A stretch of 64,000 nucleotides of DNA from contig CALVAR010000003.1 of the NCBI GenBank assembly GCA_944325575.1, positions 1-64,000 of the forward strand, written 5' to 3'. The position numbers were made by a program, and so were the translations under genes. Shown here one piece after another: positions 54,334 to 57,449 of this stretch; within the stretch, counting starts at the first letter, position 1, and every line of letters begins with the position of its first letter. Origin of the DNA: Candidatus Gastranaerophilales bacterium. GTDB taxonomy: Bacteria; Cyanobacteriota; Vampirovibrionia; Gastranaerophilales; Gastranaerophilaceae. Below the pieces are notes generated by a model. The model was not told the origin of the DNA and did no database searches. It was given only the letters and a program-made list of their open reading frames with translations.

Positions 54334-55368
54334 ATGTCTGATGAATCAAAACACATTGCGGTTTCCGGTTATTACGGATTTGACAATTTCGGCGATGAAG
54401 CAATATTAAATGTCTTAACAAAAGAGTTAAAGAAAAATAATTTTTACGTAACAGTCTTCTCAAAAAATCCGGAAAAAACAGGATTTAAGCTCGGTGTAAA
54501 TTCTGTTTACACGTTTAATATAAAGTCAATAATAAAAACCCTGAAGAACTGCGATGTACTCATAAGCGGAGGCGGCAGCCTTTTACAGGACTCAACAAGT
54601 CTAAAAAGCCTTTTGTATTATGTTTTTGTTATTTTATGCGCTGAGTTTTTCAAAAAAGATGTAATTATATTTGCACAGGGCATAGGCCCAATAAAAAATG
54701 CCTTAGGCAAATTTCTTACAAAAATTGCACTGAAAAAATGTAAATACATAACAGTGCGTGATGAAAAAAGTCTGTTTTTATTAAGAAGCTGGAAACTTAA
54801 TCCCGAGCTTGTATCAGACCCGGTATGGAATATTGAGACAAAAGCTTACAAGCCTGCAAACAGAGTCGGTATACAGCTAAGAAGCTGGAAGGGATTGTCT
54901 CAAAAATATCTTTTTAATCTTGCAAAAAGTGTAGTTGAACATTTCGCTGATAAAGAAATATGTATATACTCTTTTCAAGACACTCTTGATTTAGATATAT
55001 GCAAACATTTTGAAGCACAGCTAAAGCTTCTAAAGCCTGATATCAAGACAAAGCTGATAAATGCAATGAGCATAGAAAATACGGTAGCGTCTTTTGCAGA
55101 ATTGAATTATTTGATAGGTATGAGATACCATGCCTGCCTTCTTGCACTAAAATACGGAATCCCTTCACTTGCGCTGAGCTATGACACAAAAGTCAAAAAA
55201 ATAGCAGAAAGGTTTGAGCTGCCATGTTCCGAATTAAGTGTGGACGAAGATTTAGACAAATTATTTGACGAATTAAAAGCAATACAACCTCAAATGATAC
55301 AAAAGAAAGCGCAGGAGTGTGTTTTTGATTTTAATACGATACTAAATAAAATATCAGAGTCAGAATGA
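54334..55368 (+). CDS. Polysaccharide pyruvyl transferase family protein (CsaB type)
   Basis: The family adds pyruvate ketals to surface polysaccharides, for example for anchoring S-layer proteins. The 344-residue protein has the N-terminal HIAVSGYYGFDNFGDEAILNVLT, the PEP-binding region ISGGGSLLQDSTS and IFAQGIGPI, and a second domain with VGIQLRSW and IGMRYHACLLALKYGIPSLALSYDTK. CsaB is the best-known member, but the acceptor here is unknown. It is likely co-transcribed with the kinase upstream. Confidence 0.88.
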   Translation: MSDESKHIAVSGYYGFDNFGDEAILNVLTKELKKNNFYVTVFSKNPEKTGFKLGVNSVYTFNIKSIIKTLKNCDVLISGGGSLLQDSTSLKSLLYYVFVILCAEFFKKDVIIFAQGIGPIKNALGKFLTKIALKKCKYITVRDEKSLFLLRSWKLNPELVSDPVWNIETKAYKPANRVGIQLRSWKGLSQKYLFNLAKSVVEHFADKEICIYSFQDTLDLDICKHFEAQLKLLKPDIKTKLINAMSIENTVASFAELNYLIGMRYHACLLALKYGIPSLALSYDTKVKKIAERFELPCSELSVDEDLDKLFDELKAIQPQMIQKKAQECVFDFNTILNKISESE

Positions 55369-55386
55369 CCGATTTTTATTTATCTG

Positions 55387-56015
55387 TTGGGCAGGTATGC
55401 CCAACCTACAGCACTCAGAATAACGTCCCTCTGTCATCCTGAGGAAGTGTAACGACCGAAGGATCTCACAGGCTTTTTGAATACATATCAGATGTGTAAG
55501 ATTCTGAACACAAACGCTCTTTTCGCAAGGCACATCTGGCGCTTCAGAATGACATCCCTCTGTCATCCTGAGGAGCGAAGCGAGCTCAGGATCTTACAAG
55601 ATTTTGGATTACATATAAGATGTGTAAGATTCTGAATACAGCAATATTTTTACAGCAAAGCATATTTGATGCTTCAGAATGACAGGTGTGTGTAGAATGA
55701 CACTTATTCGTCATCCTGAGGGAACAAAGTGACCGAAGGATCTCAAGGACTTTTTGATTACATATCACACCGTCAAGATTCTGAACACAAACGCTCTTTT
55801 CGCAAGGCACATCTGGCGCTTCAGAATGACAGGTGTGTGTAGAATGACACTTATTCGTCATCCTGAGGGAGTGTAACGACCGAAGGATCTCACAGGCTTT
55901 TTGAATACATATCAGATGTGTAAGATTCTGAATACAAACGCTCTTTTCGCAAGGCACATCTGGCGCTTCAGAATGACATTTTTGTATTGGGCAGGTATGC
56001 CCAAGCTACAGCACT
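55387..56015. repeat. Array of four palindromic repeat units with flanking hairpins
   Basis: Four units of 122-123 bases run at 55433-55554, 55562-55684, 55710-55831 and 55857-55978. Each begins GTCATCCTGAGG and ends CAGAATGACA, giving imperfect inverted ends; units 1 and 4 also carry the inner pair CAGATGTG/CACATCTG, so each folds as a nested hairpin. Unit 2 has diverged and unit 3 has lost an inner arm. The whole array is bracketed by a 29-base direct repeat with the hairpin TTGGGCAggtaTGCCCAA, at 55387 and 55987, exactly 600 bases apart with one mismatch. Short ORFs inside are repeat translations, not genes. This fills the 661-base gap. Confidence 0.88.
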
Positions 56016-56029
56016 TAACCAAATAAATT

Positions 56030-56770
56030 CTATTCTTCTGATTGTTTTTTCTTTTCAATAAAGCGTGCTGCAAAAACTCCGGCCTCAAACAAGAGCCATG
56101 TCGGTACACCGAGCATAAGCTGGCTCACAATATCAGGCGGAGTAAAAATAGCAGCAAGAATAAGAATACCGACAATTATATAAGGTCTTGCATTTTCAAG
56201 CATAGACACACTCACCAGACCGAATTTTATTCCTATCAAAACAGCAAGCGGAATCTGAAACATTAAGCCAAAAGCAAGCATCATGCCTGCCGAAAGGTTT
56301 ATAAAGCTTTCCAGCCCCAAAGTCGCCTCGAGATGCGTTGTGGAAAATGCAGCAGAAAAATTCATTATCAAAGGCATTATCAAAAATATACAAAAACATG
56401 CACCTGACACAAACAAAAAAGTAGCAAGAATAACAAGCCAGTCCATAAACTTTTGTTCGTGTTCATACAATGCGGGCAAAACAAATTTTCTCACCTGCAA
56501 TGCAATATATGGAAACGCAAGCACAAAAGCTATTACAAGTCCTGCTTTTAGCTGTATTACAAAAACCTCCATCGGTGAGAAATAATGAAGCTTTGATAAC
56601 CCTTGAGGCAGAGTATTTTTTATCAAAAAATCAATAAACTTAGGCGCAGCATAAAACCCCGCAGGCGAAAGTATTACAACTGCAACAATAGACCTTATCA
56701 GCATGCTTCTCAATGCTTCAAGGTGCTGTATAAAAGTTTGTTCCTCCTGTTGTTTATCTTCAACACTCAT
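56030..56770 (-). CDS. tatC: Sec-independent protein translocase subunit TatC
   Basis: TatC recognises twin-arginine signals and forms the core of the Tat translocon. The 246-residue protein has TFIQHLEALRSMLIRSIV at the N-terminus and six hydrophobic helices with VRKFVLPALYEHEQKFMDW and IVGILILAAIFTPPDIVSQLMLGVPTWLLFE near the end. No TatA gene is in the window. No Shine-Dalgarno sequence precedes the ATG, and the repeat element at 56775 begins four bases upstream, so the original leader has probably been replaced. An AGGAGG lies inside the ORF at codons 8-9 with no start codon at the usual spacing. Confidence 0.9.
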   Translation of the reverse strand: MSVEDKQQEEQTFIQHLEALRSMLIRSIVAVVILSPAGFYAAPKFIDFLIKNTLPQGLSKLHYFSPMEVFVIQLKAGLVIAFVLAFPYIALQVRKFVLPALYEHEQKFMDWLVILATFLFVSGACFCIFLIMPLIMNFSAAFSTTHLEATLGLESFINLSAGMMLAFGLMFQIPLAVLIGIKFGLVSVSMLENARPYIIVGILILAAIFTPPDIVSQLMLGVPTWLLFEAGVFAARFIEKKKQSEE

Positions 56771-56774
56771 ATTT

Positions 56775-57129
56775 CATATTGTCAACTGACTCTGACTACT
56801 TGATGAACCTGTGTGATAGACAAGTCCGTTTTTAGCAACAAGTCCGGCACAGGCAACAGCGAAATCAGACTGGCACGCCGTGTGAGGCATAGCCGAACCC
56901 AGTGCCATTGCGAGCGGAAACGTTGAGTTTTCGTGAGCGTCTGATTTCAAGACAGTACATGGGGTCTACCTCTCAGAAACAATACTTAATTGTTTCTTCG
57001 GCAGAGTCGCAAAATGCTAGACTGGCTGCAACATCGGCTGAGCTGAGGCGAAGCCTGATGTTATGCCCCTACCTGGTGGCGTCACTCGCACTCCATGTAC
57101 TACTTCTGCAAGCGAGGCCGCCTCAGACA
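56775..57129 (-). repeat. Dispersed structured repeat, long modular copy
   Basis: This element shares ends and internal blocks with 16287-16460 but is twice as long. The extra sequence consists of self-contained inverted repeats placed between the shared blocks: GAAATCAGAC/GTCTGATTTC with TGGCAC/GTGCCA inside; GAAACAAT/ATTGTTTC; and AACATC/GATGTT. On the minus strand the right part can encode SLAEVVHGVRVTP. Nothing else is recognised in this 364-base gap between tatC and the AKR fragment. Confidence 0.75.
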
Positions 57130-57134
57130 TATTT

Positions 57135-57449
57135 TTAAGAAACTTCTGTTTGAGATTCGGTCTGTTCATTCTTAGCTTCTGATTCAGCCGCTTTTTGAGC
57201 ATTTTCCGTCAACTCCTGAGCTTCTTTTTTCAGGGTTTCTTTTGCATTCTTAAACTCGTAAGCAGCTCTTCCCATTGCCTTTTCGCTTTTTCCGCCCATA
57301 TACATATATGCCGTATCAAAATAGTTTATGCCGGCATCAATAGCTCTTTGAACCATTTTTTTATTAAGAGCATCATCAATAACTCCGTTTTTATCAGTAG
57401 GCAGTCTCATTGCACCAAAACCGAGCATTGTAAAAAACTTTGCAAACAA
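57135..57449 (-). pseudogene. Aldo/keto reductase fragment
   Basis: The open frame contains only the start of an aldo/keto reductase: LGFGAMRLPTDKNG and AGINYFDTAYMYMGGKSEKAMG, typical of the first 50-60 residues. The catalytic Tyr belongs to that stretch, but the Lys and His regions and the whole rest of the barrel are missing. After AAYEF the sequence turns into a Glu/Lys/Ala-rich tail unrelated to the family. The first residues (MFAKFFT) are the reverse complement of the opposite-strand gene, so this is a remnant at a rearrangement junction. Confidence 0.72.

What the first reader, a model, noticed from the sequence alone, without database searches (positions are those of the whole stretch)
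55387..56015. Four-unit palindromic array bracketed by identical hairpins exactly 600 bases apart
Units have inverted ends (TGTCATcCTGA/TCAGaATGACA) and an inner pair CAGATGTG/CACATCTG, while the whole array sits between two 29-base copies of a hairpin-containing sequence. Such bracketing suggests nested insertion into an older element, or recombination between brackets. Units show different stages of decay (unit 2 diverged, unit 3 lost an inner arm).
Basis: seen in the sequence. Interest (0 to 1): 0.5.

Follow-up and report, generated by a model that had tools for sequence, protein, structure and literature searches.

The report
Mosaic of two known hairpin repeats
Between two genes of a gut relative of cyanobacteria lies a small cluster of two already known kinds of short hairpin repeats, copies of which are scattered over the genome along with a gene for the enzyme that probably spreads one kind; it is mostly ordinary, with a few testable oddities.

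Summary
The array is real: four 123-124-nt units (55432-55978) between two copies of TTGGGCAGGTATGCCCAA, starts 600 nt apart. Neither part is local. BLAST gives 77 matches in the 2.02-Mb genome (genus in Candidatus Gastranaerophilales), and the hairpin pattern has 36 places (reversed control 0).

The hairpins are GTAG-tagged REPs. The genome encodes a REP-associated tyrosine transposase (RAYT) whose gene carries the same hairpin upstream and, inverted, inside its reading frame. The units are head-to-head dimers of C/TGTC-tagged palindromes: each half pairs with itself, never fully with the other end. Both superfamilies were published in 2013.

The brackets probably do not enclose an insertion. 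In this genome a GTAG REP usually caps one fixed end of a dimer (23 of 34 oriented hairpins, none reversed on that side), so the locus reads as tandem [dimer-REP] composites enlarged by 147-nt duplication. The csaB-tatC junction holding the array was seen in no other species examined.

Verdict: new member of a known kind. What moves TGTC dimers, and whether array length varies between strains, remain open.

The parts
54334..55368 (+). left neighbour, polysaccharide pyruvyl transferase gene (called csaB here), reads towards the array
   Evidence: ORF; PF04230, 155 bits
55360..55369 (+). end of a truncated TGTC dimer, TCAGAATGAC; contains the csaB stop codon
   Evidence: sequence; same 17-nt gap to the hairpin as at C6:65883
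55387..55409 (-). left bracket: GTAG REP; on the - strand GTAG followed directly by an 8-bp hairpin with a 4-nt loop
   Evidence: 36 places of the core pattern in the genome; fold z -3.5
55415..55424 (+). half TGTC palindrome with one change (TCAGAATAAC) on the tag side of the left REP
55432..55554 (+). unit 1: head-to-head TGTC dimer
   Evidence: 97.6% identical to unit 4
55561..55684 (+). unit 2: TGTC dimer of another subfamily
   Evidence: nearest relative C10:14515, 87.9%; folds better than all but 3 of 200 shuffles
55685..55708 (+). 24-nt linker, identical to 55832-55855
55709..55831 (+). unit 3: CGTC dimer, first inner arm changed
   Evidence: 86.2% to unit 4
55832..55855 (+). 24-nt linker, identical to 55685-55708; linker plus unit form a 147-nt direct repeat, 88.4% identical
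55856..55978 (+). unit 4: CGTC dimer
   Evidence: with the right REP 94% identical to C1:35655-35807
55987..56009 (-). right bracket: GTAG REP; on the - strand GTAG, one base, 7-bp hairpin with a 4-nt loop
   Evidence: fold z -3.0
56030..56770 (-). right neighbour tatC, reads towards the array
   Evidence: ORF; PF00902, 185 bits

Best explanation
A REP mosaic between two convergent genes. The brackets are GTAG-tagged REPs, served in trans by a RAYT encoded elsewhere in the genome. The units are head-to-head dimers of C/TGTC-tagged palindromes, a kind for which no dedicated transposase is known. Shown: dispersed copies, tags, hairpin structure, a RAYT gene with the same hairpins in cis, one-sided polarity of the dimer-REP composite, near identity of units 1 and 4, identical 24-nt linkers. 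Inferred: (1) the RAYT spread the GTAG REPs as single-stranded DNA; (2) an ancestral dimer-REP composite was amplified in this lineage, in part inside a larger element with terminal inverted repeats (8 of 19 listed composites have that terminal sequence just upstream); (3) the four-unit array grew in place by 147-nt tandem duplication and exchange between copies; (4) it lies at a gene junction that differs from relatives, either because repeats recombined there or because breakpoints collect repeats.
For: 77 matches; 36 hairpins, control 0; RAYT NF047646 at 140 bits against a cut-off of 80 with the hairpin 52 nt before its ATG and an inverted copy inside the frame; halves self-pair in 32 of 33 and 30 of 31 units; 23 of 34 oriented hairpins cap a dimer end, 0 of 34 reversed on that side; 8 of 19 composites with the terminal sequence upstream; unit identities and linkers; junction not seen in 22 other species, csaB looked at in 18 and tatC in 11; a comparable mosaic at C5:89413-90184 replaced by 19 nt in the closest relative. 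Definitions from PMC3733652 (parts 1-3 of 8 and passages).
Against: No movement was observed. Of 34 oriented hairpins 11 have no TGTC half on the capped side, and TGTC halves also occur on the tag side, 11 in the same and 9 in the opposite orientation. In other species the association is weak or absent: 6 of 29 in G003, 0 of 17 in G009. RAYT relatives were found in only 10 of 23 genus genomes, and G003 and G017, with 40 and 30 hairpins, have none. Units 1, 3 and 4 as single DNA strands fold no better than shuffles. The ends of the one empty site lie in other repeats and cannot be placed exactly.
Confidence: 0.88

Rival explanations
1. The units are miniature inverted-repeat transposons with TGTCATcCTGA/TCAGaATGACA as terminal repeats, inserted one after another between two halves of an older element or between direct copies that recombine.
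For: The outer ends are inverted with one mismatch; units occur at many places; some mosaics are present here and absent in a relative.
Against: The mismatch is systematic: ATCCT at one end and AGAAT at the other never pair fully (0 of 33) whereas each pairs inside its own half. The left 'bracket' carries the remnant of another dimer at its far side. A hairpin on one side of a dimer without a second hairpin on the other is common.
Confidence: 0.1
2. The array is kept as a bidirectional RNA element: in the convergent space it ends or stabilises the transcripts of csaB and tatC.
For: The two genes point at each other; REPs are reported to prefer convergent and unidirectional spaces and may act as RNA (PMC3733652, passages).
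Against: The consensus scan found no terminator-like site in the array. The four units and brackets were not seen beside either gene in G010 and G015; G022 has other repeats after csaB. This rival concerns a use and does not exclude the main reading of origin.
Confidence: 0.15
3. The composites move only as passengers of a larger element with terminal inverted repeats (TGATAATATTTATTATG), and the RAYT plays no part today.
For: 8 of 19 composites have that terminal sequence just upstream; 5 complete pairs 429-846 nt apart in the held stretches; 46 places of the terminal sequence with up to 2 mismatches, controls 4 and 2.
Against: 11 of 19 composites lack it, the window array among the loci without it; an intact RAYT gene with the same hairpins is present.
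Confidence: 0.2

Closest known systems
GTAG-tagged REPs with RAYT / TnpA-REP (PMC3733652, PMC6006769)
   Same: GTAG foot beside a short hairpin, many dispersed copies, a RAYT gene with the same hairpin in cis, location between convergent genes.
   Different: Here the bracket pair is in direct orientation 600 nt apart, and most copies in this genome carry a TGTC dimer at the non-tag side.
CGTC-tagged REPs, head-to-head dimers (PMC3733652)
   Same: C/TGTC tag, short stem beginning with A-T pairs, dimers with tags outside, no dedicated transposase found.
   Different: 3' half has a long loop; dimers are regularly joined to a GTAG REP in one orientation. Di Nocera et al. [quoted passage not shown]
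BIME / REP clusters
   Same: Mosaic of REPs and linkers in an intergenic space, partly tandem.
   Different: Mix of the two superfamilies with a fixed order.
TnpA-REP subclass 2.4 with REPs inside the transposase gene (PMC6006769)
   Same: In-frame REP between the HuH and the Y motif of the RAYT of this genome.
   Different: Motifs are DHIH, FQ and YIHYNP, not the listed NH[IFV]H, WQ and YIxNNP; here the internal copy is at a fixed place in related genes.

Membership tests
GTAG REP (brackets) | GTAG at the foot of a short stem-loop | tested here: met
   CTAC after both hairpins; 7-8-bp stems
GTAG REP (brackets) | many copies in the genome | tested here: met
   36 places, control 0
GTAG REP (brackets) | cognate RAYT gene with the same REP in cis | tested here: met
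GTAG REP (brackets) | binding and cleavage by the RAYT | not testable with these tools
   needs protein
CGTC REP dimer (units) | CGTC or TGTC tag and stem starting with A-T pairs | tested here: met
   unit sequences
CGTC REP dimer (units) | each half a palindrome of its own, tags outside | tested here: met
   five stem bases: 32 of 33 and 30 of 31
CGTC REP dimer (units) | stem of 8-9 bp and loop of 4-5 nt as in the four published families | tested here: inconclusive
   unit 2 has an 8-bp 5' stem but a longer loop; 3' halves have long loops; figures with the family consensus are not held
MITE with TGTCAT terminal repeats | ends that pair with each other | tested here: not met
   0 of 33 pair fully over the five bases tested
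MITE with TGTCAT terminal repeats | target-site duplication | tested here: inconclusive
   the one empty site has ends inside other repeats
TnpA-REP subclass 2.4 (RAYT of this genome) | in-frame REP between HuH and Y motifs | tested here: met
   codons 85-92 of L031
TnpA-REP subclass 2.4 (RAYT of this genome) | motifs NH[IFV]H, WQ, YIxNNP | tested here: not met
   DHIH, FQ, YIHYNP

The most novel reading that the evidence does not exclude
TGTC dimers, which have no known transposase, spread in this lineage by carrying a GTAG REP at one fixed end, so that the RAYT moves dimer and REP together as one single-stranded element. The same polarity in seven gap classes here (9, 10, 13, 14, 17, 29, 33 nt) and in a second species (G003: six hairpins with a 21-nt gap, none reversed) would then reflect the mechanism and not only shared descent. 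It would answer the question left open in PMC3733652.
Probability: 0.12. Interest if true: 0.5.

Novelty: new member of a known kind. Interest (0 to 1): 0.27.

Why it matters
It accounts for a repeat array in a little-studied gut lineage with named repeat kinds and a probable enzyme for one of them. The fixed polarity of GTAG caps on TGTC dimers makes the question of 2013, what moves CGTC-type repeats, testable in one genome. The RAYT with its own target hairpin inside the reading frame offers a test of self-limitation.

Tried and rejected
Rfam on the whole window at gathering scores gave only the SRP RNA at 532-789. A search of papers for six repeat strings found 138 papers; none of the 30 titles listed concerns these repeats, the other 108 were not seen. 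RNAalifold on 33 units used units in mixed orientation and showed only outer pairs that hardly vary, which say nothing; searches repeated the work with oriented units. The 33 units come from stretches fetched because they matched, not from a census of the genome. A single crossover between C1:35655 and this array as origin of the csaB-tatC junction was considered; by itself it does not give the gene order of G010. The 300-nt hairpin pair at G003:C1:170368/170669 looked like the RAYT pair, but its flanks differ. Empty-site test: flanks of 8 composite loci whole and 24 nt of a ninth (of 14 prepared) against G022 and G010; one locus (C5:89435) was followed and is empty in G022, C1:35640 was looked at and not resolved, the other six were not followed. 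A composite of GTAG and CGTC repeats was not found in print (open-access library only); listings were seen for these, PMC3733652 was read in parts 1-3 of 8 and passages, PMC6006769 in passages.

Rows dropped before counts: hairpins that could not be oriented (2 of 36 own, 9 of 38 G003, 4 of 21 G009, 1 of 5 G004); 2 of 40 G003 and 5 of 10 G004 hairpins were not fetched; G017 and G011 hairpins were not examined. RAYT codon test: 7 of 20 relatives with incomplete matches. RAYT fragments: contig-edge copies, duplicates of the same copy and a 45%-identical RAYT of G009.

Full report
What is there. Four units of 123-124 nt (55432-55554, 55561-55684, 55709-55831, 55856-55978) lie between two copies of the hairpin TTGGGCAGGTATGCCCAA at 55387 and 55987. 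The 29-nt copies differ at one base. The neighbours are a polysaccharide pyruvyl transferase gene (csaB here) on + and tatC on -, pointing at each other.

Copies elsewhere. The genome has 2,022,751 bases in 38 contigs. BLAST with 55380-56020 gives 77 matches in it. The pattern TTGGGCA-N2..8-TGCCCAA has 36 places, the reversed control 0. In 23 genomes of the genus, the own included, 15 have the pattern, with 0 to 40 copies per genome. Loci of G009 and G011 of the same genus are letter for letter L080 (its first 2000 bases compared) and L086, which come from records titled Candidatus Gastranaerophilales.

The brackets. On the - strand each reads GTAG and then a hairpin, 8 bp directly after the tag on the left, 7 bp after one base on the right, loop 4 nt; z -3.5 and -3.0 against shuffles. 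This is the GTAG REP type of PMC3733652. The genome has three places with a Y1 transposase. Two intact genes pass the NCBIfam cut-off for REP-associated tyrosine transposase (140 and 122 bits, cut-off 80). That at C7:85376-85909 has the same hairpin with its tag 52 nt before the ATG and an inverted copy inside the frame. That at C9:55359-55889 is flanked by another REP, GTAGGGTGCAATTTATTGCACC. The third is a fragment.

The units. In 33 dimers from the held stretches the 5' stem ATCCT/AGGAT pairs fully in 32 of 33 and the 3' stem ATTCT/AGAAT in 30 of 31 (two without a recognised inner arm); the outer arms never pair fully with each other, 0 of 33. So a unit is two palindromes head to head with a C/TGTC tag, as in the CGTC superfamily, and not one inverted repeat. 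As single DNA strands units 1, 3 and 4 fold no better than shuffles; unit 2 does.

Brackets reread. Of 36 exact hairpins 34 could be oriented. 23 of 34 have a TGTC half within 60 nt on the non-tag side and none has one there in reverse. On the tag side halves occur in both directions (11 and 9 of 34). The capped-side gaps are 9, 10, 13, 14, 17, 29 and 33 nt; copies are related, so these are not 23 independent events. The left bracket fits the rule: 17 nt before it stands TCAGAATGAC, the end of a truncated dimer, as at C6:65883; the csaB stop codon lies in it. I therefore read the locus as tandem [dimer(s)-REP] composites. Elsewhere the link is weaker: 6 of 29 oriented hairpins in G003, 0 of 17 in G009, 4 of 4 in G004 (5 of its 10 hairpins held).

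How the array grew. Units 1 and 4 are 97.6% identical, and C1:35686 is 95.1% and 94.3% to them; unit 3 is 86.2% and 85.4% to units 4 and 1; unit 2 is nearest to C10:14515, 87.9%. Units 2-3 and 3-4 are joined by the same 24-nt linker, and linker plus unit form a 147-nt direct repeat, 88.4% identical. Tandem duplication with exchange between copies is the simplest account; it is inferred.

Junction. None of 18 csaB loci (one with under 0.2 kb on its 3' side) and none of 11 tatC loci, together from all 22 other genomes, shows the two genes side by side within the fetched flanks. In G022 the tatC block is inverted relative to csaB and about 3.5 kb away. In G010 tatC stands beside a gene that I call udk from its sequence, without a database hit; in the own genome that gene borders the composite C1:35655-35807, which is 94% identical to unit 4 plus the right REP. 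Rearrangement through repeats is plausible, not shown. A mosaic elsewhere, C5:89413-90184, is replaced by 19 nt in G022; the direction of change is unknown and the ends lie in other repeats.

RAYT side finding. By a strict rule (tag G[TC][AC]G, eight perfect pairs) the internal inverted hairpin is intact in 15 of 20 relatives' loci and the upstream one in 13 of 20. In 14 full-length genes the eight codons of the internal hairpin are the most conserved at synonymous level, 0.90 same codon against 0.70 in the rest; the only 5 of 171 windows that reach this value overlap the hairpin. Gene conversion by dispersed REPs could also do this. In a second clade (L103-L105) another hairpin, GGGGTTTCTACCCC, stands upstream in all three; its inverted match is inside the gene in two, and degenerate in L103. 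In-frame REPs inside such genes are already reported for subclass 2.4 (PMC6006769, passages).

Comparison and verdict. Both repeat kinds, head-to-head dimers, RAYTs and internal REPs are known. What I did not find in print (open-access library only) is a regular GTAG cap on TGTC dimers. New member of a known kind, interest 0.27.

Noticed in passing
L031:1425-1450 and 1729-1752 (G000:C7); L080-L097; L103-L105: The RAYT gene carries its own hairpin inside the reading frame, inverted to the one upstream; the codons there are the most synonymously conserved of the gene, and a second clade has another hairpin at both places.
   Followed up: partly
L033, L098, L107, L110: Broken RAYT copies tend to break at the internal hairpin (residues 85-96): 4 of 8 usable fragments (a fifth, L108, starts at 96), binomial 0.0012 with the stretch chosen after seeing the data. 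Not there: L096, L109, L115.
   Followed up: partly
L107 (G002:C5:127713-129208): RAYT whose 5' part resembles the first clade and 3' part the second, split at the internal hairpin by about 1 kb that holds another reading frame.
   Followed up: no
G000 C4:56542-56970, C5:77335-78180, C9:24655-25122, C21:4905-5423, C29:10689-11181: Elements of 429-846 nt with inverted ends TGATAATATTTATTATG, several holding a dimer-REP composite; no gene for their movement was looked for.
   Followed up: partly
window 56771-56900: Another dispersed repeat of about 130 nt beside tatC, at least 8 further places in the own genome in a listing that was cut short.
   Followed up: no
window 57135-57449: A short reading frame that looks like two ends of a longer gene joined: its two parts lie about 2.4 kb apart in G022 and G010.
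   Followed up: no
L133 (G003:C11:55310-55477): Four GTAG REPs at an exact 50-nt tandem pitch at a contig end.
   Followed up: no
L032 (G000:C9:55359-55889): A second RAYT with its own REP type, GTAGGGTGCAATTTATTGCACC, on both sides of the gene.
   Followed up: no
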